DNA of 64,000 nucleotides from Polytrichum commune (taxonomy: Eukaryota; Streptophyta; Polytrichopsida; Polytrichales; Polytrichaceae): assembly GCA_950295325.1 (NCBI GenBank), contig OX485806.1, forward strand, positions 24,242,001-24,306,000, written 5' to 3'. The position numbers and the translations under genes are program-made. Shown here piece after piece: positions 24,988 through 56,488 of the stretch. The notes beneath the pieces are model-generated. The model was not told the DNA's origin. It was given only the letters and a program-made list of their open reading frames with translations, and searched no databases. The stretch's first letter is position 1, and each line of letters opens with the position of its first letter.

Positions 24988-24989
24988 TA

Positions 24990-35820: not shown

Positions 35821-36048
35821 TGGTCTCCCGGTTTTGTGTTAGGCCTACCTCCAAGAGGTGGTTTTTGAAAATAATCCAAGTGACCATGAAACATGATCCA
35901 TTCGATGCCATGTAGGAATCCATTTAGACTTTACATCCATCTTGCATTCACATACAATAACCTCCCGCTTACGTATGCACCCATTTAGGTACGCATCCCG
36001 ATTAAGCGTGCAATTTTTTTGACAAAAATTAGTGTTTATACTTTATTG

Positions 36049-36372
36049 CACTACAACAAAACACGTCTTTTACAACTGGGTTTTTTAACTCCTACGAGTG
36101 AGAAAATCCAGACTTTACTGACGTAAAAAACGACCAGTCGCTTCGGACAAGCAGTAAAGTCTGGTCATAGTCATGTCGGACAAGACGTTCCCAATGGACA
36201 CGTTCCCAATGGCAGTGAAGTTTGGGGTGCTCCGCGTGCTTCACTTCATAAAGTCATGTCCTACTTCACTATGCCTCGTCAATATAAGCAACATAATACA
36301 TGTCACCATATAACTCCCTCTAGTAATCTCGGACAAGTCATGTAGGTGTGTACTAACTTTTGCACTTCATTG
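36049..36372. mobile_element. Insertion nested in pogo-like copy 2, CACTA-like left end
   Basis: Alignment with copy 1 shows TTATTG followed directly by TTTGAA there, whereas here 324 bp intervene. ATTG occurs at both junctions (36045-36048 and 36369-36372). The insert starts CACTACAACAAAACACG, close to the CACTACAAGAAAA end of En/Spm-type elements, but the right end has no clear matching inverted terminus. It may be a decayed or 3'-truncated CACTA derivative. Confidence 0.55.
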
Positions 36373-36601
36373 TTTGAACATGTCATGTAGAGTCATTTGC
36401 CGCAAATGCATGAATTTTTTGTGCTTGACATTAAATGTCAGTTTGTTAATGTGTCGCTGAAATGTCTCAAACGATCATCGGAGTTCATCATACATATGTC
36501 CAACTTCCTTTTGATAATCGGAGCAAAGCAATTGGTTGTCGATGTCGAGGACAATGATGTGTAGAGCATCAAAGCCTTTGAAGTTGGTAGCACTTTTAGA
36601 T

Positions 36602-36814
36602 TCAACAAGTGTCTCGATAGGTTAGATTCCGTTGCAGTATGTTCTCCCGATTGTCCCATACGTTTTGGATGGCGCCTTCACTGACTTCATACTCCCGCCC
36701 TAGCGCCTGCTTACTCGGCGCGTTCGACTTGCTCAACTTTGCAATGATTTCACATCGTTGGGCTTCGGTCAAACATGTTGCCTCAAGTTTCATCCGTTTC
36801 CCATAGCAATTCAT
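36602..36814 (-). pseudogene. CENP-B-type HTH fragment of pogo-like copy 2
   Basis: Reads MKLEATCLTEAQRCEIIAKL, then QALGREYEVSEGAIQNVWDN and RENILQRNLTYRDTC before a stop. This is the complete first HTH of a CENP-B/Tigger DNA-binding region, keeping the VSEGAIQNVW recognition helix that copy 1 has lost. The second HTH and the DDE domain are absent. Confidence 0.7.
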
Positions 36815-36964
36815 CGAATCAAAGGGTCTAGAAAGCGATATAAGTAAAGTACGCAACAACGGCTCTGGTTCAAAGTGCATACTTAAGCGGGAGATTACCG
36901 TACTCCATTGGTCCCTGTAGTGTGAAGCGAACTTGGACCGGCTCCACCTTTTCCACCAATGAGA

Positions 36965-37025
36965 GTGCTTGAAGTGTAGTGGTCGCGGGCTCTCAGTCTC
37001 GTGTGTGAAGTGGGCCCTAAGGCAC
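36965..37025 (-). repeat. Partial dispersed repeat family E, reverse orientation
   Basis: Reverse complement reads AGGGCCCACTTCACACACGA, then GAGAGCCCGCGACCA, resembling the start of the copy at 35570. The homology fades after about 55 bp. Confidence 0.4.
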
Positions 37026-40000
37026 AGGATTTCTCTTTGGAACTTCAGGAAATCCCTTAGAGGAGCAGCAGAGATGGTGTTGATGAGAATATTTTTATTC
37101 TTCATTGAAACCTTGGCTATCAAGTTCCCTGAGGAGATCATTGATGGCCGAGCATGGTTTGTTGCATTTGATGAAAACGGGGACCTCATTCAACCTGACA
37201 AGGGCGATGAGAGAAGGCTATCGAGCATGCAAATTGTCCCATAGCTTTTGGACAAGACGATTGAAGTTTTATGTCAAAAATGTCAAACAATGAGTGAGAG
37301 AGAGAGAGAGTTAGATACCCGGGAGGGTGGGTGGGGTTATCCTCTTTTGAGGCATCATCTTCTTGTTTATTAGTTTTTTCAAAGAAATTGTGTTCAAGGT
37401 CGTTCAATATTTACTTAATATATCAAACTTCTTTGTTCATCATAAAGAAAATAAAAATAGTGTTATGTTCAAACAACTGTTGTGTTCGATGGTGTTAACT
37501 GTTCTGCTAGACTATAGTATTGAGTCAGTTTGATCACCAAGCACATAGTGTTGGAGTCTGGAGAGCTAAGCAAAATCAACTTTCATAAACGCATACAACT
37601 AGCTTAGTCTTGTTCATGTAATAGATGCTACCCATAGTTTGCCAAATACAAATTGTATTGGCAACTATGTATCCTCTTACATCCATTTACCAATATCCTC
37701 TCTTCTTGATACATAGATTACTTCAAAACATAGCAACTTATTCCCCCCATCTACTTATCACAAAAACATCTACGACTACATGCTTGAAGGAATTGCCTCA
37801 CCTGTGCCCACATAACCAACGTCCAAAATATGAGGTTAGTCATGTATGCCATAAATTGTTGTGTTTTATATTCATGACCCCTAAGAGCCTAATATAGTAT
37901 ACCTTCTTGCTAGCCCACGTTTATAAGTATTCAAATATTTATAAACATATATGAAAATTCTAAACTGAATATATATATAGATAGATAGAGGGAGGGAGGG
38001 AGGGAGGAAGGGGATAACACCTTTAATTGCCACGATGGATTATAAAATCTCTTTGCCTACTTGATTGTCAAGTTTTGTGTAACAACTATGTTTAAACACA
38101 AGATCGGGTTTGTATCCTTGTAGAACCTTGACTTTCGATTTAGTTGTCATGAGTTGTGGACCTTGTTGACATGTGAGTGTGGTAGCATTTCTTTGCTTCA
38201 CTTTAGCCCAAGTTTGTGATGCAAGAATCTCACAACTGAGATGTCGTTTGTTGAGGTGCCTGCATGAGTGTGTTTATTTACTCACGAGAATCATGATAAT
38301 ATATTAACAAGAAAAAACATGTAATGTCATACATATTACAATGTGGTTCAATGTTGGGAGGCTTGAGCTTCCATTATTTCTACTTGTTTTAAAATCAAAT
38401 TTTAATAATTTATGGGCTACATTGAATGTATAGCACTAGTTTGGACCCGTGTCGTCCTGATCCATTGCACTTGTGCATATGGATTAATAACCCGGGCCAC
38501 CCCAACCCTCTAAGGCCATGCAACTATATGTTTGTCTTAGTCTGTTTGTACTCATATATATATATTTCAATCTTTTTGTCCACCCACCCCCCCTTAGGCC
38601 CATGCTCATAAGCCTCACATGACTTGCCACCATGTTCCCCCTCCCATGCCATGCTTGTCACCTCTTCCAGGTTCCCACCACCAAACCCACCTTTTGCACT
38701 TTCAATCCCCCAACCTTTCCACATTCGTTTTCTCTTTCTTTTGTCACATGTTTGCATTGGGGAGGAGACTTTGACAAGTGGCGCTTTTCCTTTTTGAAAT
38801 TGTTTTTCTTTTTTTGGCAAGAATAATGGGGAACGATGGGGTGACGGCCTCACTATCACCACGTCTTCCACCATTGTATATAGATTATATGAGGACCATG
38901 AATATCTTGATGGTCATTTATATGTTAAATTGATGGCTATTTGCATTTTTCAACATCAAGCTTTTCAAAAATTAAGTAATAGTTGTATTACTCACTTGTT
39001 TATCCTACACGTAACATAATTTTCTACTTGAGGATAAGCTTGTGGAAGATTTGTTCCTTACATGGGTGTGGGATAGCTTATCGCAATCTCTCTCAATTTG
39101 GGCTTCTACCATGCATGAAGGGACATGGATGTTAGGTTTTTTTTTTAAATTATTATTATTATTTTAAATGCCAAAATTGGTTGAAGAGGTGCCATGTAGC
39201 CACCTATGTGTGCCACTTGCTATTGGGAAAGTAGACACCAAGTCCACAGTTAAAGATTGCTATAGGTGGACTTTATGTGCGACGAAGGGGCATGATCTAC
39301 GACAATCTAAGCATTCTCCATGATAACGTGAATGATCATCTCGGAAGCATGTGGGAAAGAGGTACGAAATGTACATTTGAAAGGATTGATGGTTTTCGTG
39401 CAAGCAATCTTCAAGCAACACAAGGGAGTTCCTTGCACTTTCAATCAAAACATTCATATTTCTTTGGACATTGCTTTAATTAGTAGAACCGTTGAAATGA
39501 AAAGCTAAGAAGAAGACTCAAAAGTTGCAGTTTTGAATTCCAAGTGCTTGAAAGATGTGTGAACCTAGATGACAAAAAGTTCACATAAATGTCTCTTGAG
39601 CTCGTTACTTTGAGAATTTTATGTCGTCAACGATGTATTCAAGTTTTAAAATGGTAGTGCCATTCACAATGAAGCGATTGGGTAGCAAATTTTGTTTGGA
39701 GGGACAATTGAAAGGGCATTCAATGGGTGTGGGCAACCACGCGACTTACGCAAAAGAAAAAAACAAACCTACAATATGGGAAAAATCTTTGTAAGGGTAC
39801 ATGATGCTCTACATGCTTCAAGTTATGTGTGCAAGAAGGCTAACAATATGTAGTTTTTGAAGTAACTCTTCAAATATATGTACACATGTGTAATTATCTA
39901 GCGTACATGTGATTGGCAAAAGAGGTGCAAAGGCTTGTTGACCCTATATTTCAATTTGAGTTGTTCAAGTTAAAATTCAATTTTTGCAATTGACTTTGGT

Positions 40001-42651
40001 GGCAATGGAAGGGAGTTGGTAGAAGACATGTGGCATAAGGAAAAAGAAGAAGAAGTGATAGCGCATGCGTATCATGAGTTCGACCTCCTCAAAAAAATGC
40101 AGTTATGGTAATCCAACAATTGTGGCCCGTGAATCAAAAGACTGTGGAATGAAGGCGGAGAAGTGGTTGAATAGGCTTGAAGCTTGTCTAGATGAGCAAC
40201 ATCCCAGGAGGATTTGTTCCTTCAAATCTTTTAAGGATGGCAACTGTATGGCAACTCCTCCATGTATGTAATTTTGTCATGTAGAGAATTTCCATCATAC
40301 TCCATTTGAGAAATGATTGGAATGTGTGATAAAAATGATAAAGGTAGATTGGAATCACCCCATGTGATGTCTTTTGTCAAATTGAAAATGGAATTGGTGT
40401 TCCCAAGATTTCTAAATGTTTGTCAACCAAGCATTGGCCATTGATTTATCTATTCAAATTGAACCTACATATGCTCTAAGATTGATTCTTCACTCAAGTT
40501 ACAAACAACTTTGCATTGAAATAGAAATAAATGAAATCATTGAACTTAGTGCACGTATTGAGTTTACGTGTTTAGGGTTTGCACAAGTTGGATATCATGA
40601 AATGAAGTGTTCCCCTTTTCATATTTTAAGTTTCATCATTGGGAAAATTATTTTATTGTTTAATTTAAGGTAAGTTATAGATTGTACAACCTGAGATGTT
40701 TAGTCTTGAACAAAATTATTTGTAAAAAAAAACACACATATAAGGGGGTTCGCAAGTTGTGTCAGAAAAAAATTAGAACCACGAATGCCATTGCTAGGTT
40801 TACGGACCAAGGCAACCAAGCACAAAAAATGTGCTTTGAATATGAACCTATCACACATACACAAGGAGAGATTATTAAGGAAAGCTTTGAGGAGTCTATT
40901 CCAATTTGACACGCAATTTGTTTTCCATATATCATAATGTGCCAACATTTTGTGCGAGTTTACGATCCACAGAATGTTGCAACAATCCAATCCAAGTAAT
41001 TTATTGCATATTGAGAACGCTAGAAAATTTGTCAATTGTAGATAGATGTTTTGGTTTGGTGTGAATGTTAGAATGAGTCACGATTTAAGCTGCATGTTGA
41101 ATTTGCAAACCACCTCATAAGATACTTGATCCTTTGAGGTTCTTTGTGTACATAATAAGTGGTTTTAACCCAATTCACTACATGTCATATGTATATATGT
41201 CTATGTATTTGTATTGTGGCAGTTGCAAATTACCATATACAACACTAAATGGTTCGATGAGCTAGTGGTGAGCTTATTGTTGATGAATGCCACAAAATTT
41301 GAAGAAGTACTATTGAAGAAACTTGACGATCGACAAGAAACCAATCACAAGAGATACGTACGTCACTGTGTTTCACAAACCTTTCGTAGCGTGCTCATAT
41401 TGAATGAGTTGGTTACATGCATATATAATATGCTCTTGATTGATTTTGTCAATATCAAGAGCAAATAATTGATTATGCGTTTGTGGTGCACATGTGTAAT
41501 TGACCCAATATCCTTGTCTTTAACCCATTAAATAATTGACATTTAAGTATATTTGGACTAACCGCTTGTCTAAAAATAATAAGGGATGTGCATTTGTGGG
41601 AACAAAAATATCAAACGACAACAACAAATACAATAACATGACAATCACAATGTTTGTATTCCAGGTTCGCCAACCACCGTAGTTGTATAGTTTTGCAATC
41701 TAACATACATCATATTGGTGATTGGAATTATCCGAATTCGTGCATAAATCCAAATATACTTACATCCTAATTAAATTCATGCAACAACTTCTTTTGAAAT
41801 TTGGATAGGTGTTTTGCAACCTCTAGCATGCCATCACTTTGTAAGTCACCACTTTTGAGCTTTTATTACACATACAAAAATTGATGTTTCTATGCTTGTA
41901 GTTAATGCTATTGGTCTCATATGACCAAAATGCATGTCTTGGGATTTGCATTTGTTTAATTTAAGCATGTGATTTTCATAACTACTTCATGCATTTCTAT
42001 ATTCTACATATGAGATCGAATCCATGTAGATGTCTATTGATTCACTTAGGAAAAAAAACCAAATATTAAATGTTAATTATTTTGGTATGCCAGAGTGAAG
42101 TTCATCCTCATACCAACAAATATGGAACGAAAGTCAATCCCAACACATGCTTTCTACCAATCTCACTTAAATAAAGGTAAAAAACAAGCAAAGGACCATA
42201 CAAATTAAAATCACAAGAGAAGAAACGAAGTACTTGGACAAACCATGCATCACCAAGTTCATACAAACAATCACTTGGTTCAAGGAAAACACCACATGAG
42301 CAACAAAATCAATAACTTGTAAGTGAAATCGCATAGAAAATCCAATGCCAAACTTTGATCAAAGAGATGAACAACTAGAACTAAATGAAAATGCAACCTC
42401 ATCACACTTAGATTCTCATGCATCTATTTCAGATCTTGATGAAACTTCCAAAAAACCTTATGTCCATTGGATCCCAAACGAAACAAATCCTTCACGTGAA
42501 TCATCTACGAGTGTTCAATAGTTGAATATGTTAGCATCAAGTAAACCCTCCTATGGAGGATCCTCATATGTTTTAGGTTTGAAGCATTTGCCTACATGAG
42601 ATTAACAGTTTCATAATTAAAATAAATTCATATCCTCCATCTCGACATATA
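37026..42651. other. Long AT-rich intergenic stretch without recognisable genes
   Basis: No gene family, RNA gene or clear element boundary identified. Short open frames (for example 40065-40271, 40416-40673, 41214-41468) have no motif that I recognise and lie among stops. Simple repeats occur near 37286-37307 (GA) and at 37969-38012. Confidence 0.45.
37969..38012. repeat. Compound microsatellite (TA, TAGA, GGGA)
   Basis: Alternating TA passes into TAGA and then GGGA tetranucleotides. Confidence 0.85.
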
Positions 42652-42858
42652 ATGTCTAAGGGAAAGATAATGATGGAGACTCCTGCAGAGGAAAATAACG
42701 AAATTGCTTGGTTGCAGTCATCATCTTACAAAACAAGTCAACAACCAAATTCAAGGCCCACATCTTATAGGCCAACTCAACAATATGTAACAAATAATTC
42801 ATACACGAAGAGTTATGGAGACCAATCACGATTGACGTCATTTAATTCAAATGAATGA
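42652..42858 (+). CDS. Upstream 68-codon piece of the giant repeat ORF
   Basis: Opens at ATG 42652 and ends at TGA 42856-42858. It lies in exactly the same frame as the giant ORF and already shows the motif (NSRPTSYRPTQQY, KSYGDQSRLTSFNSNE). After the TGA the same style continues without pause. It could be the true N-terminus cut off by a recent nonsense change, a start region joined by an unseen intron, or a decayed outer repeat. Confidence 0.4.
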   Translation: MSKGKIMMETPAEENNEIAWLQSSSYKTSQQPNSRPTSYRPTQQYVTNNSYTKSYGDQSRLTSFNSNE

Positions 42859-42999
42859 GACACCTCTGTAAGTAATGAATATCATCAAACTTATGTATCA
42901 TCTCAACGATCTTTGGCAAATAAAACATCATTTTTTGAGGATAATGGAGATCCTCAACTGGGACCAACATCATACAATGAAGCTCGACAATACACATCT

Positions 43000-45900
43000 A
43001 TGAGACTTCCAAGTGATGACAATCAAAGCCTATCAAAACCAACATCTCATATATCAACTCAACCATCCATGGCTAGCAACACAACGTCATATGCAGATGA
43101 TAGTGATGCTCGATCACGAGCAACGTCCTATAAAGCCACTCGACAATACACAATAATGACTCCCTTTCAAGATGAACCTCAAACTCAATCAAGGGCAATA
43201 TCTCAAATATCAACTCATCAATCTACAAGCAAGAATGAACCTGAATCAAAATTTACATCATACAAATCAAGTGAACAATCAATATTACAAGAAAATGCAA
43301 ACGATTCACTTGAAGCTCCATATCGATCAATGCAACAATCTACGACCAACTTATCTTTGGGGGAGAAACCATCATATAGATCAGAAATACAATCAATTGC
43401 TGGGGACGTTTCAGACACCATGTCTAGACCAATGTCCTACATATCACGTCATCAATCACAAACAAAGAAATCCTCTGAAGATGTGAATGATCCTCAATCA
43501 CGGACAACCTCGTACCACCCATCACATCAATCGATGGATTCAAACACAATAGAAGATGTTGCATCTCAATCGAGGCCAACATCTTATGTATCACAATCAT
43601 CACAATATCGTTCCAACCATCAATCAGGGATTGAATTTCCTCTTACAAATGAAAATGAATCAATATCTTATCAAGAATCCATGGCTGAGAACCCTTCAAA
43701 TTCCATGGATATACATGAACACCAATCAAGACCAACATCATATAAATCATCTCGACAATCAACTACAAACAATCATATATTTTCAAGACAACAGTCAACT
43801 ACAAATGACCTAGATACAGAAGAGGTTGAAACACAACCAAGATCTACCTCGTATGGATTGACTCGACAATCTCGGGTTGCGAGTCCTTCCATTCATGAGC
43901 AAGATAATTTGCAACAATCAACACATCAATCTATGGTAGAAAACCTTCAACCAATGGAAATTGACCCTCAAACTGGGGAACCATATTACGCACCGCCTCG
44001 TGAGTATACTATGGGGAGCTCCTCCATAGAGCAAAACCGAGCTCGTTCAAAGCCGGCATCTTATGCAAGATCGAATCAACAATCAATGGCAGATGATAAT
44101 GTAGGTAGAAATGAAGATGCATCAAGGTCCACATCATATAGATCAACTAGACAATCAACCAATGAAGGACCTAATTTTGTAGAAGAAACCAAACCTCAAT
44201 CGAAAGTGTCATCATACAAATCAACTCAACAATCTACTGCAAACCATGTTCTCAATGACATGTCAACACGACAATCACCGTATCGATCAACCCGTCATTC
44301 AACACCAAGTCATGTGGTTAGAAGGGGAGATCAAGACGCCCGGTCAAAGCCGACATCCTTTAAATCGGCCCGAAAATCTGCGCCTGCGAAGCGTTTTGTA
44401 GATGAAAATGAACTTCATTCTAGACCTGCATGGAACAAATGGATTGGAGAAGGCATACCTGACATTTTCTATGATAACACAAATGATGTCCTATCAACAC
44501 AAACACCCTATAGATCAACTCAACAATCCACAATTCATACATTAGGAAATGAATTTCAATCTAGACCAAACTCTTATGCAACAACTCCACAAAGATCGAC
44601 TCGGCCATCTAAAGGAGATTATGTTGGTTATGAGTCACAATCAAGACCTACATCTTATCGCTCAGCTCAACAATCAAGGTCACAAAGCCCTTTTGCACAA
44701 GATGACGTAGTGGAATCATGGAAATCACCATATGCATCAGTTCGACAATCTACTGCAGGAGGGTTTGATTCTCGATCACAACCAATATCTTATGCATCAC
44801 CTCAACAATCAACGACAAACCCTAGTTATAGTGACCAATTTGATAACCCGTCCTCATATCAATCAACTCACCAATCAATAGCCCAAAATACACAAGAAGA
44901 TGATGCTCAAACAAATAAAATACCATATCATTTTGCTCACCAGTCTACAATAGACAATCATAATACGGAGGCATTTGACTCTAGTTCTAGGCCAACCTCA
45001 TACCAATCAACATGGCAATCTACAAATGTGTCGCCATCGGGGTACATTGATGAATCTAACTCAAGGTCAACATCATATCATAATGAGGAGTTTCAATCCC
45101 AATCAAGGCCAATATCTTATCGATCCGCTCATCAATCCACAAGAGATTCTCCTATAGAGGCATTTGATTCTAGATCCAGGCCAATATCATATCGATCGGC
45201 TCATCAATCCACACAAGAGTCTGCCATTGATCCTAGGTCAAGGCTGGTATCTCATCAATCGGCTCATCAATCCATAACAAATTCCCTTGAAGAGGTCGTT
45301 GACTCTAGATCAAGGCCGATCTCTTATCGATCGGCTCATCAATCCACAACAGACTCCCCCGAAGGGGTGTTTGATTCAAGATCGAGGCCGATCTCTTACC
45401 GATCGGCTCATCAATCCATGACAGACTCCCCCGAGGGGATGGTTGATTCGAGATCAAGGCCGATCTCTTATCGATCGGCTCACCAATCCACAACAGACTC
45501 CCCCGAGGGGGTGGTTGATTCGAGATCGAGGCCGATCTCTTATCGATCGGCTCACCAATCCACAACAGACTCCCCCGAGGGGGTGTTTGATTCGAGATCG
45601 AGGTCGATGTCTTATCGATCGGCTCATCAATCCACAACGGACTCCCCCGAGGGGGTGTTTGATTCGAGATCGAGGCCGATCTCTTATCGATCGGCTCACC
45701 AATCCACAACAGACTCCCCCGAGGGGGTGTTTGATTCGAGATCGAGGCCGATGTCTTATCGATCGGCTCATCAATCCACAACGGACTCCCCCGAGGGGGT
45801 GTTTGATTCGAGATCAAGGCCGATCTCTTATCGATCGGCTCACCAATCCACAACAGACTCCCCCGAGGGGATGGCGGATTCAAGATCTAGGCCGATATCT

Positions 45901-48900
45901 TATCGATCGGCTCATCAATCCACAACGGACTCCCCCGAGGGGATGTTTGATTCAAGATCAAGGCCGATCTCTTATCGACCAGTTCACCAATCCACAACAG
46001 AATCCCCCGAGGAAATGGTCGATTCGAGATCAAGGCCGATTTCTTATCGATCGGCTCATCAATCCACAATTGACTCCCCTGAGGGGGTGTTTGATTCAAG
46101 ATCGAGGCCGATCTCTTATCCATCGGCTCATCAATCTACAACGGACTCCCCCGAGGGGATCTTTGATTCAAGATCAAGGCCGATCTCTTATCGATCGGCT
46201 CACCAATCCACAACAGACCCCCCCGAGGGGAAGGTTGATTTGAGATCAAGGCCGATCTCTTATCGATCAGCTCACCAATCCACAACAGACTCCCCCGAGG
46301 GGATGATTGATTCGAGATCAAGGCCGATCTCTTATCGATCGGCTCACCAATCCACAACAGACTCCCCCGAGAGGATGTTTGATTCAAGATCAAGGCCGAT
46401 CTCTTATCGATCGGCTCACCAATCCACAACAAACCCCCCCGAGGGGATGGTTGATTCGAGATCAAGGCCGATCTCTTATCGATCGGCTCACCAATCCACA
46501 ACGGACTCCCCCGATGGGATGGTTGATTCCAAATCAAGGCCGATGTCTTATCGATCAGCTCACCAATCCACAACGGACTCCCCCGAGGGGATGGTTGATT
46601 CGAGATCAAGGCTGATCTCTTATCGATCGGCTCACCAATCCACAACGGACTCCCCCGAAGGGATGGTTGATTCGAGATCAAGGCCGATCTCTTATCGATC
46701 AGCTCACCAATCCACAACAGACTCCCCCGAGGGGATGTTTGATTCGAGATCAAGGCCGATCTCTTATCGATCAGCTCACCAATCCACAACAGACTCCCCC
46801 GAGGGGATGTTTGATTCAAGATCAAGGCCGATCTCTTATCGATCAGCTCACCAATCCACAACGGACTCCCCCGAGGGGATGTTTGATTCGAGATCAAGGC
46901 CGATCTCTTATCGATCGGCTCACCAATCCACAACGGACTCCCCCGAGGGGATGGTTGATTCGAGATCAAGGCCGATCTCTTATCGATCGGCTCACCAATC
47001 CACAACGGACTCCCCCGAGGGGATGGTTGATTCGAGATCAAGGCCGATCTCTTATCGATCAGCTCACCAATCCACAACGGACTCCCCCGAGGGGATGTTT
47101 GATTCAAGATCAAGGCCGATTTCTTATCGATCGGCTCGCCAATCCACAACAGACTCCCCCGAGGGGATGGTTGATTCGAGGTCAAGGCCGATCTCTTATC
47201 GATCGGCTCACCAATCCACAACAGACTCCCCCGAGGGGATGGTTCATTCGAGATCAAGGCCAATCTCTTATCGATCGGCTCACCAATCCACAACGGACTC
47301 CCCCGAGGGGATGTTTGATTCAAGATCAAGGCCGATCTCTTATCGATCGGCTCACCAATCCACAAGGAATTATCCTGAAGGGGTTTTTGATTCAAGATCA
47401 AGGCCGATCTCTTATCGATCGGCTCATCAATCCACAAGAGAGTCCCCTGTTGATGTGAATGATCCGAGGTCAAGACCGGTGTCTTATAATCCTATTAGTC
47501 AATCCATAACAAATTCTCCTACGGAGGTGGATGACATTAGATCAAGACCAATGTCTTATAGTTCCGCTCATCAATCCATAACAAATTCTCCTGTAGAGGA
47601 GTTTGATTCAAGATCAAGGCCGGTGTCATACCGATCTGCCCATCAATCTTCAACCGAGTTGCCTACAATAGTGTTTGATTCAAGATCAAGGCCAGTGTCC
47701 TACAAATCAGCTCGTCAATCCACAAACGAGATTCCTATTGATGATATTGATTCTAGATCAAGGTCAGTGTCCTACAAATCAGCTCGTCAATCCACAAATG
47801 AGACTCCTATTGATGATATTGATTCTAGATCAAGGCCAATGTCCTACAAATCAGCTCGTCAATCCACAAACGAGACTCCTATTGATGACATTGATTCTAG
47901 ATCAAGGCCGGTGTCCTACATATCGGCTCGTCAATCCACAAACGAGACTCCTATTGATGATTTTGATACTAAATCTAGGCCGGTGTCTTATAGATCGGCT
48001 CATCAATCTACAAGAGACTCCCATGTCGATGTGTCAGATTCTAGATCAAGGCCAGTGTCTTATCGATCAACCCATTCATCTACAAGAGAGTCCCCTGTTG
48101 ATGTGGTGGACTCTAGACCAAGGCCAATATCTTATAGATCAGCTCATCAATCTACTGTTGATGTTGATTCTAGGTCGAGGCCGGTATCTTATCGTTCTGC
48201 TCATCAATCTACAAGAGAATCACCTACAGAGGTGTTTGGCTCTAGATCAAGGCCGGTGTCTTTTCGATCAACTCAAACATCTACAACAATTGTGCCAACA
48301 GAGGCGTTTGATTCAAGATCAAGATCTTATCGATCAGCTCAAACATCTACAACAATTGTACCAACAGAGGCGTTTGATTCAAGATCAAGATCTTATCGAT
48401 CAGCTCATCAATCTACAACCAATTCTCCCACTGAGATGTTTGATTCCAAATCAAGACCAATGTCTTATCGATCAGCTCATCAATCTACAAAAGGCTCTCC
48501 TGTAAATGACTCAAGATCAAGGCCCGGATCTTACCATTCCACGCATCAATCTATTAATGGGTCGCCCACAAGCATGTATGATTCCAAATCTAGGCCAGTG
48601 TCTTATCAATCGGGTCATCAATCTATGACTCTATCTTCGGAAGAGAATTATGGTAAATCAAGACCAACATCGTACCGATCTACACATGCCTCCATAGCAG
48701 ATCCCCCTCATATACAAGAATTTGATGCTCGATCACGACCAATATCATACCATCCAATGCAACACTCTATGACAAGTCCAACATCTTATCGTTCAGCACA
48801 CCAATCGACGGTATTCTCCAATGAACCTAGTTACGAGGTAATTGGACCTCGATCCGCCCACCAATCTGTAGCGTATTCTCCTTATGGAGAGGAGGTGGTA

Positions 48901-50064
48901 TATGATTCATGGGAGACACCATATACATCGAACCAACAATCTATGATGGATGATCGTGCCAAAAATGAGATAAAAGCTCAATCAAGACCAACATCGTATA
49001 GATCAACTCGTCAATCCACAAACCAAAATGAAAATTCTAGAACTCAATCAAGGCAGGAGTCGTATCGATCGGGACGCCAATCTAAGGTTGATTGTAAATC
49101 AACCCGTCAATCAAAAGTTGATTGTGAAAAAAATAAAGCTCGATCAAGAGCAACATCTTATAAAACAAATCAACAATCTATGAGTGATGGGCAACATACG
49201 AATGCTCAATCAAGCACAACATCCTATAGATCAAATCATCAATCAACAATCGGGGGCCTCAATATGGAAGACGAGGAAATAAACTCATGGCAATCACCAT
49301 ATGCATTGAATCGACAATCAAATGGTCCTCAATTTAAGAATGAGTATCAATCAAGACCGACGTCTTATAAATCAACCCGACCATCCACAAACAATCATCA
49401 ATTGATTGACGACGCCAAAGTTCAATCAAGAGCAAACTCATATTTTGGAGATGTTCCCTACCCTAAAGACATCAACGAAATTGAAATGGAACAAGAGAAA
49501 CGATATTATTCATTGGATGATGTGGAAAACATAAATACACTAGACACAAGAATATCATCAATTAATACGGGATTAAAAGATGTCAATAGAATATCATTTG
49601 GTAACAAAGTGTTGCCACCAAGCCCTGAGGACTCACGGTTTGTTACATTGGAGGTTCGATCAGACGTGCACACCGAAGCACTTGATAAATTTTTGGTTGG
49701 AGGTTGGGACAGCATTACACTTCAGATACCGCCTGAAGTACATACTATACTACAAAACATTCGTAGTTCAATTGATTCAACTCCGGGTACGGATTCACGA
49801 AACTCAATGATTAATAGAGTCGAGGTTCAACATGACAATAAAAGGTCAAACTCCAATTCAAGGAGATCATCCTTTGATGAACATGAAATTGGCAATCCAT
49901 CATTAAGCAATGGAGATGAAAACATGGCCAATATTCGAATCTCATTCCCAAATAGCACAAGTGCACATGATGCAATGGATGGGCAATCTCAAGAGGCCCA
50001 AGAGGCGGAAGACCGAAAGATTTCAGTTGGCTTGAGGTTTAATGTGGAGGATATAGAAAACTAA
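43000..50064 (+). CDS. Giant repeat-built protein of unknown family (SRPxSY/HQS repeats)
   Basis: The frame is open from the TGA at 42858 to TAA at 50064; the first ATG after that stop is at 43000, giving 2354 residues (2470 positions if counted from 42652). No intron is apparent. The whole protein is built on a short theme, R-[PS]-x-S-[YF]-x-[ST]-x-x-[QH]-S. It is irregularly spaced (about 25-40 residues) at both ends and strictly 24-residue periodic in the centre. Composition is rich in Ser, Arg, Gln, Thr and Tyr with scattered acidic residues, so it is predicted to be disordered and full of RxxS-type phosphorylation sites. There is no signal peptide or membrane span. The last about 210 residues are non-repetitive (RFVTLEVRSDVHTEALDKFL, GWDSITLQIPPEVHTILQNI, NMANIRISFPNSTSAHDAM) and could be a small folded region. 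I recognise no family. Retention of one frame through 7 kb argues for a protein; expression is unknown. Confidence 0.6.
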   Translation: MRLPSDDNQSLSKPTSHISTQPSMASNTTSYADDSDARSRATSYKATRQYTIMTPFQDEPQTQSRAISQISTHQSTSKNEPESKFTSYKSSEQSILQENANDSLEAPYRSMQQSTTNLSLGEKPSYRSEIQSIAGDVSDTMSRPMSYISRHQSQTKKSSEDVNDPQSRTTSYHPSHQSMDSNTIEDVASQSRPTSYVSQSSQYRSNHQSGIEFPLTNENESISYQESMAENPSNSMDIHEHQSRPTSYKSSRQSTTNNHIFSRQQSTTNDLDTEEVETQPRSTSYGLTRQSRVASPSIHEQDNLQQSTHQSMVENLQPMEIDPQTGEPYYAPPREYTMGSSSIEQNRARSKPASYARSNQQSMADDNVGRNEDASRSTSYRSTRQSTNEGPNFVEETKPQSKVSSYKSTQQSTANHVLNDMSTRQSPYRSTRHSTPSHVVRRGDQDARSKPTSFKSARKSAPAKRFVDENELHSRPAWNKWIGEGIPDIFYDNTNDVLSTQTPYRSTQQSTIHTLGNEFQSRPNSYATTPQRSTRPSKGDYVGYESQSRPTSYRSAQQSRSQSPFAQDDVVESWKSPYASVRQSTAGGFDSRSQPISYASPQQSTTNPSYSDQFDNPSSYQSTHQSIAQNTQEDDAQTNKIPYHFAHQSTIDNHNTEAFDSSSRPTSYQSTWQSTNVSPSGYIDESNSRSTSYHNEEFQSQSRPISYRSAHQSTRDSPIEAFDSRSRPISYRSAHQSTQESAIDPRSRLVSHQSAHQSITNSLEEVVDSRSRPISYRSAHQSTTDSPEGVFDSRSRPISYRSAHQSMTDSPEGMVDSRSRPISYRSAHQSTTDSPEGVVDSRSRPISYRSAHQSTTDSPEGVFDSRSRSMSYRSAHQSTTDSPEGVFDSRSRPISYRSAHQSTTDSPEGVFDSRSRPMSYRSAHQSTTDSPEGVFDSRSRPISYRSAHQSTTDSPEGMADSRSRPISYRSAHQSTTDSPEGMFDSRSRPISYRPVHQSTTESPEEMVDSRSRPISYRSAHQSTIDSPEGVFDSRSRPISYPSAHQSTTDSPEGIFDSRSRPISYRSAHQSTTDPPEGKVDLRSRPISYRSAHQSTTDSPEGMIDSRSRPISYRSAHQSTTDSPERMFDSRSRPISYRSAHQSTTNPPEGMVDSRSRPISYRSAHQSTTDSPDGMVDSKSRPMSYRSAHQSTTDSPEGMVDSRSRLISYRSAHQSTTDSPEGMVDSRSRPISYRSAHQSTTDSPEGMFDSRSRPISYRSAHQSTTDSPEGMFDSRSRPISYRSAHQSTTDSPEGMFDSRSRPISYRSAHQSTTDSPEGMVDSRSRPISYRSAHQSTTDSPEGMVDSRSRPISYRSAHQSTTDSPEGMFDSRSRPISYRSARQSTTDSPEGMVDSRSRPISYRSAHQSTTDSPEGMVHSRSRPISYRSAHQSTTDSPEGMFDSRSRPISYRSAHQSTRNYPEGVFDSRSRPISYRSAHQSTRESPVDVNDPRSRPVSYNPISQSITNSPTEVDDIRSRPMSYSSAHQSITNSPVEEFDSRSRPVSYRSAHQSSTELPTIVFDSRSRPVSYKSARQSTNEIPIDDIDSRSRSVSYKSARQSTNETPIDDIDSRSRPMSYKSARQSTNETPIDDIDSRSRPVSYISARQSTNETPIDDFDTKSRPVSYRSAHQSTRDSHVDVSDSRSRPVSYRSTHSSTRESPVDVVDSRPRPISYRSAHQSTVDVDSRSRPVSYRSAHQSTRESPTEVFGSRSRPVSFRSTQTSTTIVPTEAFDSRSRSYRSAQTSTTIVPTEAFDSRSRSYRSAHQSTTNSPTEMFDSKSRPMSYRSAHQSTKGSPVNDSRSRPGSYHSTHQSINGSPTSMYDSKSRPVSYQSGHQSMTLSSEENYGKSRPTSYRSTHASIADPPHIQEFDARSRPISYHPMQHSMTSPTSYRSAHQSTVFSNEPSYEVIGPRSAHQSVAYSPYGEEVVYDSWETPYTSNQQSMMDDRAKNEIKAQSRPTSYRSTRQSTNQNENSRTQSRQESYRSGRQSKVDCKSTRQSKVDCEKNKARSRATSYKTNQQSMSDGQHTNAQSSTTSYRSNHQSTIGGLNMEDEEINSWQSPYALNRQSNGPQFKNEYQSRPTSYKSTRPSTNNHQLIDDAKVQSRANSYFGDVPYPKDINEIEMEQEKRYYSLDDVENINTLDTRISSINTGLKDVNRISFGNKVLPPSPEDSRFVTLEVRSDVHTEALDKFLVGGWDSITLQIPPEVHTILQNIRSSIDSTPGTDSRNSMINRVEVQHDNKRSNSNSRRSSFDEHEIGNPSLSNGDENMANIRISFPNSTSAHDAMDGQSQEAQEAEDRKISVGLRFNVEDIEN
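45342..47429 (+). repeat. 72-bp tandem repeat array (about 29 units) inside the giant ORF
   Basis: Each unit encodes 24 residues: DSRSRPISYRSAHQST, then TDSPEGM and V or F. Many differences between units are synonymous (tca/tcg, cac/cat, aca/acg). Pairs of units form a 144-bp higher-order period around 45601-45888. Looser 24-25-residue units continue on both sides, roughly from 45100 and to 48620. As 72 is divisible by three, every frame free of stops stays open, which explains long antisense frames here. Confidence 0.92.
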
Positions 50065-51860
50065 TTTCGTAGAAGAATTTGTTGGCTCTCAATTATTAAG
50101 ATGCTAGTTTTGACTCAACTATGTACCATATTCATGGGAAAATGTTCAACATGCATTGTTGTGTAGTCATTTGATTCAAAATCATTAAAATTTATAACAA
50201 TTTTGCGACCACAAGTTTGGTATCATGTTCAAAATTATTTTCCACCTTATGGTATAATTGAGAGACAATGAAAGACATCAAATTTCACATTTGAATACAC
50301 GATGATATGATCATTTGGGACTTAGAGATCTCAAGACTACAAAATCCAAGGTTGCAAGAACATCCACATTGTTGGGCATTATTGACAACAAGAGGGGCAA
50401 TGAAACATACACTTATGGGAGAGTTTGGAGTTTGCATGTTGCCCACAAAAATTAATGTGTTTCAAAGTAACAAAAGTGTAGCAAATTTATAAAATGAGCA
50501 AAAGACATATACAAGGAGGTTTTATCCTCTTTGGATCCCCCTCAAGTTGAAAGAACAAAGCCATGAAGATATGAGATTTGAACCTAGATGGCTTACATCA
50601 AAATGTGGAGCACATTATTTCTCATGAAGAGGTGGATGACTAAGAGTCAAACAACGCTTTCAACCCTTTCCTTTGATGACAATGAGGATGGTGTTTGGCA
50701 ACACCTATGATTTGATAAGTGTACTTTATTCATATTAATTCTACAGAAGCATGAGTTGAGCTCATGATAGTTGATCACCACATATGTAGGTTGGGCGGGA
50801 AGGTTGTAAATACATAACACGGATTTTAATGCCAAAGAGATTTAAATGTTGTGCAAATTTTCAACTTGATTTGAATGAGAAAATGCAATCATACACATAA
50901 TTTCAGGGTACAATCACATCCGAATTCTATTCCTTGTAAACTAGCAAATTGATTGGTGCATAAAAATATCAGAAGCACACTAAACATGCAATTCAACCAG
51001 TTGCAATTAAGTATACTTAAGAATGTAAGAATGTTTCTCTACAAATTAATTTACACTCAAGCATGTGCACAAGTTTGTGATAATAATATGTCATTCATAT
51101 GAGGTTGTTGGCTACCTACAAACTAGTTTCCACCTTGTCAAGGGAATACTCTTTCCACCATAGGTTTATATGCTTGCGTACTCCACCTACATCTTTGCCA
51201 ACAAGGAATTTCAACATGCACCCAACCACCCGCAAACAAATCCGGCACATAATGCCCAGTTTAGATGCAATGCCTCATTGTATTGGTAGGTGGGGTGAAC
51301 AAAATTTCTCCTTGTATAAGGTGAGATCACCTTATTTCACAAGGGGAGTATGTTAACATGGATGAATTGAATTAAATAAACTTGTTAACAAACCAATTTT
51401 TGTTCATGCACGTGCACATATTTGTGATGATCTTATTTCATACCTTTGAGGTGGGTGGCTAATTGCAAGCTTTTTTCACTGTGCAATGAATTATTTTTCA
51501 TTACGGGTTAAACTAATCACATGTGCCACCTACACGGTCCACCATCAAGAAATTTCAGCACCTCTCCAATCACAAGTTTGATCATTTTCTCTTGGGAGCA
51601 TGTAAACTGAGCTTGGGACTTCTTGGGAATGTGTGGGAGCTGCGACGTTGATAAGACCTAGAGCAAGTCTACATCCCAAGATTTTGTTGAAGCTGAAGAG
51701 CTTCTGGCTAACACACCAAAGACAAGATGAACCTTCAAACACTGGATGGTTGCTCCCGATCTTTTAAGGATAACTCTAAAAGCTTGTAATGTAATGTATA
51801 AGTTCAGCCTAATGCATGCCAAGGAGAGTATAATAAGATATTTTGGGAGTGGAAATGTTA
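50065..51860. other. Intergenic DNA, nothing recognised
   Basis: AT-rich 3' flank of the giant ORF. No gene or repeat family identified. Confidence 0.45.
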
Positions 51861-52149
51861 GCCCCACATCATGAATGGATGAAGATGGAGATCATTCATC
51901 CGGAGCTGCTCACATTATCCGCAGGGCCACTGGCGCAGCGCAGATCGCTATCACCATCGCCTTCAATTGCCTCAGATATTTCGATTTCATTAGATATTTC
52001 CATCTGGTTCAATCTTCTCGTATTTGTTCACAATTTCCCTTTCAGTCCTGCCTCAGTTCTCGAATTGCTTCGAAAAGCCAACCCGACCTTCCTGCGAGGT
52101 ACATTCTTGCTCCCACCATTCTTCCTGGTCCGAATTGGCTTTCAAGGAA

Positions 52150-53350
52150 TGCAGCTTGAATGTCTTTGCAATTTTGGCCATTTCGTTTTTGGCTTTCTTG
52201 GTATCTGTGCTGCATGAAGTGGAAGTAATGGCATGTGTTGGCTTAAGATAGCTGGTCGACTTCTGGAAATAGGGTACATTCTAGTGAGAATTCTCTACCA
52301 TCTGTGTTTGGGGTCTCTGAGGGTCCGGGATTCTTGGGAGAATTTGGGATTTTGGGGGATTTGTTCTAATTCGCTTTTCTTTCTGTCAAGGTTTCCAGCT
52401 TGAATGTCTTTGCAATTTTGGCCACTTTGTTTTTGGTTTTCCTGGGATTTGCGCTGCATCCTGGAGTGGAAGTAATGGCATGTATTGGCTTAAGATAGCT
52501 GGTGGATTTTTGCTTTAGGTTGCACTTCTGTTGAGAATTTGCTACAACTCGTGTTGGAGGGGCCTTTGATGGTCTGGGCTTTCTGGGAGAATTTTTTAGG
52601 ATTTTGGGGAATGTGGTCCGAATTCTGTCAAAGACGTACTTCCTCCTGCAAACATTGACAACAGGCATGCGTTTGCTTAAGGTAGCTGGTGGCTTTTTGG
52701 TTTAGGTTGCGTTTCTGGTGAGAATCTGCTACATCTTGTATGGGGGGGGATTTTTGATAATATGAGGTCTTTGGGAGAGATTCCAGGTGGGCACCCGCTT
52801 CTCGTAGGATAGGATATGAAACACGCAATTAGTGCGAGATGATTAGCGAATAGAAATTGTGCCCGTAGCCATTTGCCTCATAATTTCTGGACCTCATATT
52901 GACAGCTTATCCATTATCAAAGTGAAGATTCTCGTGCTCATTAGTGGGCATATGGGTCCCCTCAATCATATAGCACATAGCCAATTCTCTTTTTTAAACA
53001 CATGTCTTTTTGGTTGCTGCCAGTTCTTAGATCCACACTTAACCACATACCACCTCAAATTTAGGTGTCCAGATTATTGTTGTGTTTGATTTAGGCACGT
53101 CTACTTAATGAAATTTTAGATTCAGCTATGCATTGTTGATGAAATGGAAGCAAGGGTATGGTTTGCAGGTGGAAGCAAATGGCCTTTTGTTTTCCTCTGG
53201 GATTTGTGGCACATGGAGTGAAAGTAATGGTATGTGTCTTAAGTAGTTTTCTTGTTTGAGCCCCGTAGGTTGCGATTTCTGGTGAGAAATTGCTACAATT
53301 TGCGCCGGGGGTCTTCGATGGCATCTGTGGGATCATTTCACATTCCACCG
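52150..53350 (+). repeat. Degenerate tandem repeats of about 243 bp upstream of the NFU gene
   Basis: CAGCTTGAATGTCTTTGCAA starts near 52152 and 52395 (243 bp apart). A third partial unit runs about 52630-52790 and a fourth about 53150-53350. All share a TTTTCCTGGGATTTG-like stretch, a GGAAGTAATGGCATG-like stretch and a GAGAATTTGCTAC-like stretch. Dispersed repeat copy 3 sits between units three and four. No protein is encoded. Confidence 0.6.
52790..53110 (+). repeat. Dispersed repeat family D, copy 3
   Basis: Same orientation as copy 1, from GGGCACCCGCTTCTCGTAGG to TTTAGGCACGTCTAC. It interrupts the tandem repeats upstream of the NFU gene. Confidence 0.7.
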
Positions 53351-53490
53351 CGCAGTGTTGATGAAGTAGAATTAAGGGTTGAGGTTTTGGGGGGAAATTG
53401 CAGGTTGGGAGGTTCGCAAAGGGGAGGCAGGGAATGAGGGTCCAGAGTGCGCAATCTTGAAGAGGAGATTGATTTAGGGTTCTTTCAAGG

Positions 53491-56488
53491 ATGGCAGCCA
53501 TGGCGTTCAAAGCAAGCGCAAGAATTTCCTCCTCCTTGGCACCAGGTCCAACTTCTTCAACTCAAAATTCAAGGGCGCAGAGCACACTAATTGGAGGCCT
53601 ACGCTCAAGAAAAATTTGCACCACAATTTCAACCCAAAGCATGACCACTGCCACGAAAAAGAGGGATGAATTCTGCAGCCTGTCTGCTCGGGCCAATGCA
53701 TCATCATCATCATCATCGTCGCAGCAGCAACAACAAAAAGAAATGCATCAAGCTCTCGAATCGCTCTCCACCGTGTTGACAGACGACGCGGTTCCGGAAG
53801 GTCACAAGGGCCTCCACGGATTTTTGTACGGGGAAGGCGGGGCGGAAGTTCACGGATCCGGAAGTTCCTCTTCGAAAGATTTCAAAATTCGTGAGGGCGA
53901 GGACGACGGCACCGGCATGGTTTCGTACGAGGCGTATCTTGCACCCCGGGAGCCTCACAAATTCGCGGGCGTCTTCGCGATTTATGATTCGGAGGGATCG
54001 GTGCAATACGTGAGTTACTCGCGGAACGTGGTTTCGTCCTTGAAGAGTTTGAGAGGTAGGGTTGGCGAGGAGAAATGTAGTTCGGTTAGGGTTAGGGTTT
54101 ACTCAGAAGCTTCGTTGATTACTCGGTCGAAGATGGAGGAGGAGAAGGGGAGGTGGTTGGAAGAAGTGGCGGGGATGGCACCCGGGAATTCGAGTGAGAA
54201 GGATTTGTGGGAAGGGAACGGTGCGAGTGGAAACGGGAGCTCGTTGGCGCTCATGTCGGAGGAGGAGCGACGAGAGTACGAAGAGAAGAAGTTGAAGATG
54301 CGGAAAGCCATGGGTGAGAATTTATTCGATGATGTTGCGGGGGAGGACGATGATGCGCGCACTCGCAGGCTCAAATTCATGCAGGTCAGGCTTTTTGGTC
54401 TTTTCTTATCTCATGTGTTGCTTTTTTTTCGTTGTGTGATTGAAATTGAGGGTTTTAGGCTAGGGCCCCCTGTACACTAGAGCTTGAACTTGCAATGATT
54501 TTGGGGAGTTTGATTCTTGGAGTTAACAAGCTTTCATCCAAAGCTCAGACTATTGAGAGCTTCTCGACCAACCTTTGAGGATGTTTTTGTTTTTGATACC
54601 AACCTTTGAGGATGTTTTTGTTTTTGATACCACTCGAGTCTCTATACTGTTTGCCCTCTTTTTTAAGACACATTTCGTCACGCAAGAAAGTTATGTAGTA
54701 CCTGAATGTCGTATTTTCGTTAATATGATATGTTGGCCTCCAATGTCGTACTATTAAGGTTTTTCGAGAAAATGGCCTATTTCAATGTAAAATGTCATCT
54801 TCTATACATAATGAAGATACATAAGTATGAAAGGACATTGTATTGAAAGCATATCCTCACAACGTTCCCCTACATGTTCCAAAGTACTAATCACATATGA
54901 ACCTTGAAATATGTGGATCCCACCACGCATGCACATTATTTACCTCTACTATATGACCATACATACTGGTAGAACATTGATCTGAACCCTAAAATTCTAA
55001 ATAGTGTTGTGGAATTTTATACAGGCGGTAGAGGGAGATGATTGGAGCAGTGTGATTGATGGCCAAACCCAGCAAACTTTGGATGCACCAGCTTCCAGCA
55101 ACGGAACTGCAGTTGAAAAGACACCCTCAAAAACACCAACCGAATTACCAGCACAGATTGTGAGCCCTTTTGCAAATAATTCGGGTGCTCAGACAGGCGG
55201 AGGAGGGCTTTACTCAGCAGATTCGTATGAGCTCAGTGTTGCAAATGTGGACATGGTTCTTGAAGAAGTGCGGCCTTATCTCATTGCTGATGGCGGCAAT
55301 GTTGAGGTTGTGAGCGTGACCGATGGCATTATTTCCTTGCGTCTCCAAGGTAAAATTTGGATAACCTTCCATATCTATGGATAAATCATTTCTCTACTCG
55401 TAAGGTAGACTGGTGTTGTTCCACCACCCCCAGAATGTGAACACCTATATTTGAGTGGTGTGTGGTTAGGTGTGGATCTAAGAACGGACACCAAAAAGGC
55501 ATCATGTTTAAAAGAGATTGGGCTATGTGCTCAAAATATGTTAACCTTTGTGTGGTTAGGTGTGGATCTAAGAATGGACACCAAAAAGATAGTATAGTCT
55601 TGTGAGCCCCGAAAGTTATGAAGTGAAGGGCTAGGGGCATGAGTTGGATTTGCTAATTATCTTGCACTAACTGCGTGTTTCATATCCTATGAGAAGTGGG
55701 TGCAGAGAGAAGGGATTATATTGAACTTAGATTAAAACATCTTGCAATTGACTACTGCATGTGTGGTATTTGGTCATGTGCAGGTGCATGTGGCACATGC
55801 CCAAGTTCGACAAGCACGATGAAGATGGGCATAGAAAGGGTTTTGAGGGAAAAGTTTGGCGATGCAATGAAGGAAGTGGTTCAAGTTGACAAGCAAGAAA
55901 TTGGTGCCAGCATTCCTGTACGTCGAATCCTCTCTTCCCTATTTTGTGACTTAGTGCAGTAACCAGTTGGATTCCGAAGAATGATGTACACATAATAGTA
56001 AGGGCCACTTCACACTATGACTATGAAATTCTGAGGGCCCTCTAAACTAATTTGAAGCCGTACTATGGAAGATTGAAATTGAATTTTGTGTAGTCACGGG
56101 CCTTCAAGTGTAGGTTAAAGATGTATGTGACTAGGCTCTCAACCAAATGCTATTTCATTGCCACCATATTCATATGGGCCCTTCTACCCAACTAATCAGA
56201 ATAAATCAAGGGTTGTGAGATTTGGAGTTTCTTTAGTCTTGAACTCAAGTGTAAATCTGCCGTAAGTTTTGGTGGTTCATATTAATGCAGGCTGTTGATG
56301 CACATTTGGAAATGTTGAGACCTGCAATTCGAAATTACGGCGGTTCAGTGGAGGTGGTATCAATTGACACGACAACTGGCATTTGCCAAGTGAAGTACCA
56401 AGGCCCTCCGCCGATCGGCATGGGTATCCAAGCGGCCATAAAAGACAAGTTCCCAGACATTAAGCAGGTCATTTTATCAGCACCTTAA
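53491..56488 (+). CDS. Chloroplast NFU1-type iron-sulfur scaffold with N-terminal GIY-YIG-like domain
   Basis: Exons 53491-54384, 55025-55349, 55784-55917 and 56291-56488 join in frame to 516 residues. The first 70 or so residues are Ser/Arg-rich and lack acidic residues until about position 60, like a plastid transit peptide, followed by a Ser/Gln run. Residues about 150-240 resemble the GIY-YIG-like fold seen at the N-terminus of plastid GRXS16 and in a cyanobacterial protein (GVFAIYD at 160-166, YVSYSRN at 173-179, PGN at 231-233). The canonical YIG glycine is S175, so nuclease activity is doubtful. The NFU domain follows (VDMVLEEVRPYLIADGGNVE) with the cluster-binding C409-G-T-C412 in LQGACGTCPSST. 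A second, degenerate NFU domain without cysteines ends the protein (AHLEMLRPAIRNYGGSVEVV). This order matches Arabidopsis NFU1, which has about 231 residues and lacks the extension. NFU proteins pass 4Fe-4S clusters to plastid targets. Confidence 0.9.
55405..55712 (-). repeat. Dispersed repeat family D, copy 4, in NFU intron 2
   Basis: Reverse orientation; it lies between exons 2 and 3 of the NFU gene. A 60-bp internal part (TGTGTGGTTAGGTGTGGATC) is itself duplicated at about 55460 and 55550. Confidence 0.7.
55995..56235 (+). repeat. Dispersed repeat family E, copy 2, in NFU intron 3
   Basis: Matches 35570-35820 in order and orientation, and occupies most of the last intron of the NFU gene. 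Confidence 0.6.

What the first reader, a model, noticed from the sequence alone, without database searches (positions are those of the whole stretch)
42652..50064. Giant intronless repeat protein with no recognisable family
A 7-kb open frame in an otherwise gene-free region encodes more than 2300 residues assembled from one short theme (R-P-x-S-Y ... Q-S). It has irregular outer repeats, a strict 24-residue core and a unique C-terminus. A random AT-rich sequence would not stay open this long, and diverged outer repeats keep the same frame, which suggests selection on the protein. The many R-x-x-S sites suggest a heavily phosphorylated disordered scaffold or extracellular/structural polymer, but that is inference.
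Basis: partly seen in the sequence, partly recalled or inferred. Interest (0 to 1): 0.8.

Follow-up and report, generated by a model that had tools for sequence, protein, structure and literature searches.

The report
Giant disordered repeat protein, plant gene
A probable plant genome holds a 7,200-base stretch that natural selection has kept as a protein-coding gene for a giant, floppy, highly repetitive protein of no known family, probably a many-armed scaffold, although its very start looks damaged and nobody has yet shown that it is expressed.

Summary
The giant frame is real, with one correction. It is open from 42859 to 50064 (2,401 codons; 2,354 residues, 265 kDa, from the first ATG at 43000). 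The claimed start at 42652 is cut off by an in-frame TGA at 42856, though the repeat theme continues upstream of it. A DNA-only profile finds 46 outer copies, 46 of 46 in one frame, although 31 of 44 spacings are not 72. The locus looks single copy: three protein searches of its 408-Mb genome matched only this locus (capped candidate lists). Pfam-A, viral contigs and prokaryote genomes gave no relative; the solved-structure hits to leucine-rich repeats are coincidental. Plant proteomes and RNA-seq could not be searched. The repeats look disordered, with Tyr at a median spacing of 24 residues, 229 Arg, 28 RxRxx[S/T] sites in the core and no hydrophobic stretch for secretion. Best reading: an intracellular, phosphorylation-tunable multivalent scaffold, working like filaggrin or FUS but a member of neither. 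Main rival: a gene that has lost its 5' end and may be dying.

The parts
42859..50064 (+). Open frame of 2,401 codons plus TAA; in-frame ATG at 43000 gives 2,354 residues (264.5 kDa, pI 7.3)
43000..43002 (+). First in-frame ATG after the TGA, the most upstream candidate start of the present frame (inferred, not shown)
42856..42858 (+). In-frame TGA that separates the long frame from an upstream segment with the same theme
42652..42855 (+). Upstream segment in the same frame, from ATG, with the same theme (profile hit at 42751, score 20.9, above the best score elsewhere in the window, 13.6); probably former N-terminal coding sequence
42210..42540 (+). Weak coding-like blocks in two frames (42210-42312 frame 0, 42345-42518 frame 2), perhaps further decayed or differently spliced 5' coding sequence
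   Evidence: scores 10.2 and 9.1; null 99.9% at 9.9; weak off-frame profile hit at 42342
42859..45102 (+). Left outer repeats, diverged, irregular spacing
45103..45309 (+). Three units (24, 21, 24 residues) leading into the core
45310..47469 (+). Core: 30 units of 72 bp, consensus SRPISYRSAHQSTTDSPEGMFDSR; GC at third codon positions 0.52
47470..49434 (+). Right outer repeats, from near-core to diverged
49435..50061 (+). Non-repeat C-terminal region, 209 residues, no match to a family or to another place in the genome
   Evidence: structure model uninformative

Best explanation
This is a protein-coding gene, apparently single copy, under purifying selection for its amino-acid sequence. It encodes an intracellular, intrinsically disordered, highly multivalent scaffold of about 2,350 residues. 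Each roughly 24-residue unit offers an Arg-Tyr pair (S-Y-R-S) as an interaction 'sticker' in a polar spacer. About 70 units on one chain would let it form a network or condensate, or gather partners, and the C-terminal 209 residues would act as targeting or partner-binding part. RxRxx[S/T] and S-P sites beside the Tyr would let kinases loosen or tighten the network. The central array is kept uniform by unequal exchange and gene conversion. Shown: open frame, selection, single locus, composition, motif enrichment. Inferred: disorder, condensation, phosphorylation, the role of the C-terminus, the start at 43000.
For: Selection: 30 core units dN/dS 0.29, shifted frames 1.9 and 2.2; 9 intermediate units 0.45 against 0.88 and 0.78; 28 outer motifs 0.34 against 0.93-1.18. 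Core changes 67 synonymous, 60 non-synonymous, 0 stop against 35.8, 87.0, 4.2 expected. DNA profile: 46 of 46 outer copies in one frame, 44 of 44 spacings a multiple of 3 though 31 are not 72. Disorder: scaled hydropathy 0.364 against boundary 0.414; AlphaFold2 on 27 aligned repeat windows pLDDT 43.6, pTM 0.10. Stickers: 104 Tyr with median spacing 24, 229 Arg, 51 YR. RxRxx[ST] 28 against 3.8 in shuffled core and 13 against 2.1 in the right part. No hydrophobic stretch. Tyr-Arg pairs drive FUS condensation (PMC7865556, passages); more filaggrin repeats lower the critical concentration (PMC12468283, passages).
Against: No transcript, peptide or orthologue could be examined. The 5' end carries an in-frame TGA and perhaps further lesions, so the present start is uncertain. 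In the left part RxRxx[ST] is not enriched (1 against 0.8) and [ST]P is below its shuffled mean (10 against 13.8), so the phosphorylation switch is at best a property of core and right part. A low-confidence model is compatible with disorder but does not prove it. The outer dN/dS set was chosen by protein motif, which biases it downward.
Confidence: 0.45

Rival explanations
1. Dying gene: the protein was under selection until recently, but the 5' end is now broken (TGA at 42856, perhaps upstream frame changes), so little or no normal protein is made and the long frame is a relic not yet hit by mutation.
For: The same theme in the same frame upstream of the TGA; coding-like blocks in two frames at 42210-42518; no paralogue found to check against.
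Against: One certain and perhaps a few more lesions in about 650 bp of 5' sequence against none in 7,205 bp, although the long frame has 233 places where one transition would make a stop. That uneven pattern fits an N-terminus lost or replaced while the rest stayed under selection. Splicing, a downstream start or an assembly error could each also explain the TGA.
Confidence: 0.25
2. Structural filler or repeat-length-tuned polymer without condensation: a spring, spacer or cytoskeletal cross-linker whose length and charge pattern matter rather than sticker contacts.
For: Disordered, near-neutral (pI 7.3), uniform 24-residue period, array length set by unit number.
Against: Near-invariant S-x-x-S-Y...Q-S residues over 27 aligned four-unit windows suggest contacts beyond mere length.
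Confidence: 0.15
3. Secreted wall or mucilage polymer (mucin- or extensin-like).
For: Ser/Thr/Pro-rich giant repeat protein, a composition shared with such polymers.
Against: Highest 19-residue hydropathy anywhere is 0.46 and it lies in the C-terminus, so no signal peptide from ATG 43000; no SPP, no PPP, 2 Cys, 12 NxS/T. A lost upstream exon with a signal peptide is not excluded.
Confidence: 0.08
4. Non-coding minisatellite with an accidental open frame.
For: The core is open in other frames too and has the form of a 72-bp minisatellite.
Against: dN/dS, frame-keeping of 46 of 46 outer copies, and a stop-free C-terminus and outer parts.
Confidence: 0.03

Closest known systems
Profilaggrin and other S100-fused-type proteins (mammalian epidermis)
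   Same: Giant disordered protein whose repeats lie in one large exon, flanked by unique ends, with a near-identical central array (PMC12468283, passages); rich in Ser, Arg, Gln, His (composition of filaggrin recalled).
   Different: No S100 domain or any other Pfam domain here; unit of 24 residues rather than one of roughly 324 (recalled); no sequence match found.
FUS/FET low-complexity domains
   Same: Tyr and Arg stickers in polar Ser/Gln spacers (PMC7865556, passages).
   Different: Tyr and Arg sit in the same short unit rather than in separate domains; no RNA-binding domain; strict period; much longer.
SR proteins (RS domains)
   Same: RS/SR dipeptides enriched, 114 against 45.6 in shuffled core.
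   Different: At most 34% of a 50-residue window is in RS/SR dipeptides, longest run 4 residues; no RRM match.
Leucine-rich repeats of lamprey VLR/repebody type
   Same: 24-residue period and a P-x-G-[VLM]-[FV]-[DE]-like string, giving E 7e-10.
   Different: The alignment rests on that string alone; the leucine positions face Ser, Arg, Tyr and Pro; outer units lack the string; the repeat model has pLDDT 43.6.
Plant extensins and other hydroxyproline-rich glycoproteins
   Same: Repetitive, Ser-rich, SY motifs.
   Different: No SPP or PPP, no signal peptide.

Membership tests
Leucine-rich repeat protein | Conserved hydrophobic (Leu) positions in each unit | tested here: not met
   Alignments match only the P-x-G-x-x-[DE] string; Leu is 1.5% of the protein.
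Leucine-rich repeat protein | Solenoid fold | tested here: inconclusive
   AlphaFold2 on 27 repeat windows: pLDDT 43.6, pTM 0.10, DSSP gave nothing; no fold, but low confidence is not proof.
SR protein | RS domain: 50 or more residues with over 40% RS/SR content (definition recalled) | tested here: not met
   Maximum 34%, mean 16%.
SR protein | One or two RRM domains | tested here: not met
   No RRM in Pfam scans; an unrecognised upstream exon is not excluded.
S100-fused-type protein (filaggrin) | N-terminal S100 domain | tested here: not met
   No such Pfam match.
S100-fused-type protein (filaggrin) | Giant tandem-repeat coding exon with unique ends | tested here: met
   this bears on how it works, not on membership.
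FUS/FET family | RNA-binding domain (RRM, zinc finger) beside the low-complexity part | tested here: not met
   No such Pfam match.
Extensin / hydroxyproline-rich glycoprotein | Signal peptide and SPPP-type motifs | tested here: not met
   No SPP or PPP; highest 19-residue hydropathy 0.46, measured from ATG 43000.
Condensate scaffold (works like) | Self-association in vitro or in cells | not testable with these tools
   Needs protein.

The most novel reading that the evidence does not exclude
A lineage-specific, single-copy gene for a giant plant condensate scaffold in which one 24-residue module carries both the Tyr-Arg sticker and its own kinase site, so that one kinase could dissolve or build a whole compartment at once, and in which array length, changed by unequal exchange, sets the threshold for assembly.
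Probability: 0.15. Interest if true: 0.75.

Novelty: new member of a known kind. Interest (0 to 1): 0.42.

Why it matters
Very long, low-complexity, taxon-restricted repeat proteins are easily dropped or masked by annotation pipelines (general knowledge). Here sequence alone shows selection on the amino-acid sequence. If it is a scaffold, its repeats are a natural set of about 70 sticker-spacer modules, with a uniform core and diverged flanks, in which the effect of valence and of phosphorylation sites could be measured. It would also be a clear test of how such a gene survives loss of its original 5' end.

Tried and rejected
Minisatellite with a chance frame: rejected by dN/dS, DNA-level frame-keeping and stop statistics. 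Leucine-rich repeat: 30 solved sequences matched the first ten core units at E up to 10, best 7e-10, most of them named as leucine-rich repeats, variable lymphocyte receptors or repebodies; rejected after viewing two alignments. SR protein, extensin and S100-fused membership: not met. Sub-cut-off Pfam matches of the parts: 10 families, all below their curated cut-offs, the best RabGGT_insert at E 5.1e-4 (20.6 bits, cut-off 24) on the right repeats; treated as composition matches. C-terminus: one match in its own genome, itself; no solved structure at E up to 10; no relative in viral contigs (5 pattern stretches, none confirmed) or prokaryote genomes (22 stretches, none confirmed); single-sequence AlphaFold2 pLDDT 35.8, not used. 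An intron over the TGA: I looked by eye at GT and AG sites and saw none that keeps frame and spares the theme; no splice-site program was run. Transposon origin: inverted repeats of 25 nt or more in 38000-54000 were 9 weak pairs (70-84%), none bracketing the frame as terminal repeats; no long direct repeat pair flanks it, though that output lists mainly the 72-bp array. Rfam at gathering score: 0 matches. tRNA: 0. Papers: listings showed nothing that describes this gene; these word searches cannot find an unnamed sequence, so no claim that it is unpublished.

Not answered although tried: the organism check by Rubisco small subunit PF00101 and a DNA search with 41500-42900.

Full report
What is there. 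The plus-strand frame is open from 42859 to 50061 with TAA at 50062. The first ATG after that is at 43000, giving 2,354 residues, 264.5 kDa, pI 7.3. Ser is 21.1%, Arg 9.6%, Thr 8.1%, Pro 7.0%, Leu 1.5%, Cys 0.1% of the 2,401 codons. The order is: diverged left repeats (42859-45102), three leading units, 30 strict 72-bp units (45310-47469, consensus SRPISYRSAHQSTTDSPEGMFDSR), right repeats that diverge with distance (47470-49434), and 209 non-repeat residues (49435-50061).

More than chance. The two outer parts have 748 and 648 codons without a stop; 300 order-2 Markov simulations of each gave at most 258 and 244, while the other five frames carry 17-78 stops each. The core does not count as evidence by itself, because its other frames are open as well (445 aa on the minus strand, 266 and 263 aa on the plus strand).

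Selection on the protein. Among the 30 core units, taken by position and not by motif, Nei-Gojobori dN/dS is 0.29, against 1.9 and 2.2 when the same DNA is read in the shifted frames. In 9 intermediate units (the first of which is also core unit 30) it is 0.45 against 0.88 and 0.78. In 28 outer 12-residue motifs it is 0.34 against 0.93 to 1.18; this set was chosen by protein motif, which biases it, and 2 matches of other length were dropped. Against the core consensus there are 67 synonymous, 60 non-synonymous and 0 stop changes, where the observed substitution spectrum predicts 35.8, 87.0 and 4.2. To avoid motif bias I scanned with a DNA profile of the first 39 bases of the unit: 46 outer copies score above everything else in the window, 46 of 46 are in one frame, and all 44 spacings between neighbours are multiples of 3 although 31 of them are not 72. 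At a looser threshold 55 of 56 are in frame. The long frame has 233 places where a single transition would create a stop, and none has one. Units are related by descent and not independent, so these are not formal probabilities, but they agree.

The 5' end. The theme continues upstream of the TGA in the same frame: a profile hit at 42751 scores 20.9 against a best of 13.6 elsewhere in the window. A codon-likelihood scan trained on the outer parts and C-terminus also rises at 42210 in frame 0 (10.2) and at 42345-42435 in frame 2 (8.0-9.1); in 5,040 windows from 1-42000 the 99.9% level is 9.9 and the maximum 20.6, so these two blocks are suggestive only. The profile's single off-frame hit, at 42342, is weak too. 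Either the gene once began further upstream and its 5' end has decayed, or splicing or an assembly error is involved. That no lesion is seen in the 7.2 kb downstream argues that the downstream frame stayed under selection, or that the damage is young.

Copy number and relatives. Searches of the 408-Mb, 64-contig genome matched only this locus: the C-terminus 1 of 1 match, the left part 27 of 27, and the right part plus C-terminus 15 of 15 even at E up to 10, one of these reaching up across the TGA. The tool scores only its best candidates (3, 13 and 14), so a very distant relative could be missed. Pfam-A gave nothing for the whole frame and only sub-cut-off matches for its parts. The C-terminus has no solved relative and no confirmed relative in viral contigs or prokaryote genomes. 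The core matches leucine-rich repeat structures at up to 7e-10, but the alignments show that this comes from a shared 24-residue period and a P-x-G-x-x-[DE] string, with the leucine positions unmatched. No plant sequence collection was available, so 'orphan' is unproven.

The organism is probably a plant: the window holds a DUF1664 gene (E 3.8e-40, plant family by recall), a glutaredoxin-S16-like frame and a sub-cut-off AP2 match (27.5 bits, cut-off 33.3). A check by another gene family did not complete.

How it may work. The chain lies on the disordered side of the charge-hydropathy boundary (0.364 against 0.414). AlphaFold2, given 27 aligned four-unit windows, returned pLDDT 43.6 and pTM 0.10, and DSSP gave nothing. 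There are 104 Tyr at a median spacing of 24, 229 Arg and 51 Tyr-Arg pairs. Tyr-Arg contacts drive FUS condensation, with Ser and Gln as spacers that promote hardening (PMC7865556, passages). In filaggrin, also a giant repeat exon, 12 repeats condense at low concentration and variants with four or fewer fail under physiological conditions (PMC12468283, passages). RxRxx[ST] sites number 28 in the core against 3.8 in shuffles and 13 against 2.1 in the right part, but 1 against 0.8 in the left part. No stretch is hydrophobic enough for a signal peptide or membrane helix. I therefore favour an intracellular multivalent scaffold tunable by phosphorylation; condensation and phosphorylation are inference.

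The core differs from its flanks in base make-up: GC at third positions 0.52 against 0.23-0.25. Neighbouring units differ by about 6 of 72 bases and units 25 apart by 9. Both fit homogenisation by unequal exchange and GC-biased gene conversion (inference).

Verdict. A real gene by its history, single copy as far as seen, of no family found here; present function unproven. Works like filaggrin or FUS; member of neither.

Noticed in passing
window 45310-47469: The homogenised core has third-position GC 0.52 while the flanking repeats have 0.23-0.25, a possible GC-biased gene conversion signature inside one gene.
   Followed up: partly
window 24456-25000 and 35942-36860: Long inverted repeat arms (four pairs, 60-171 nt, 78-87%) about 11-12 kb apart; one arm overlaps a frame with a CENP-B N-terminal match (36602-37189), so probably two inverted copies of a Tc1-like element.
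   Followed up: no
window 26202-27602: Two adjoining frames with DDE_Tnp_4 matches (E 2.4e-11 and 5e-5), a Harbinger-type transposase remnant in two pieces (type name recalled).
   Followed up: no
window 32227-33288: DUF1664 protein in one frame (E 3.8e-40).
   Followed up: no
window 53491-54480: Frame with a match to the solved domain of chloroplast monothiol glutaredoxin S16 (E 1.1e-4), with a 31-bp duplication shortly after it at 54567-54632.
   Followed up: no
window 996-1831: 185-bp tandem repeat, about 3 copies in each of two overlapping rows.
   Followed up: no
window 63091-63999: Frame running off the window with an AP2-domain match below the curated cut-off (27.5 bits against 33.3).
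   Followed up: no
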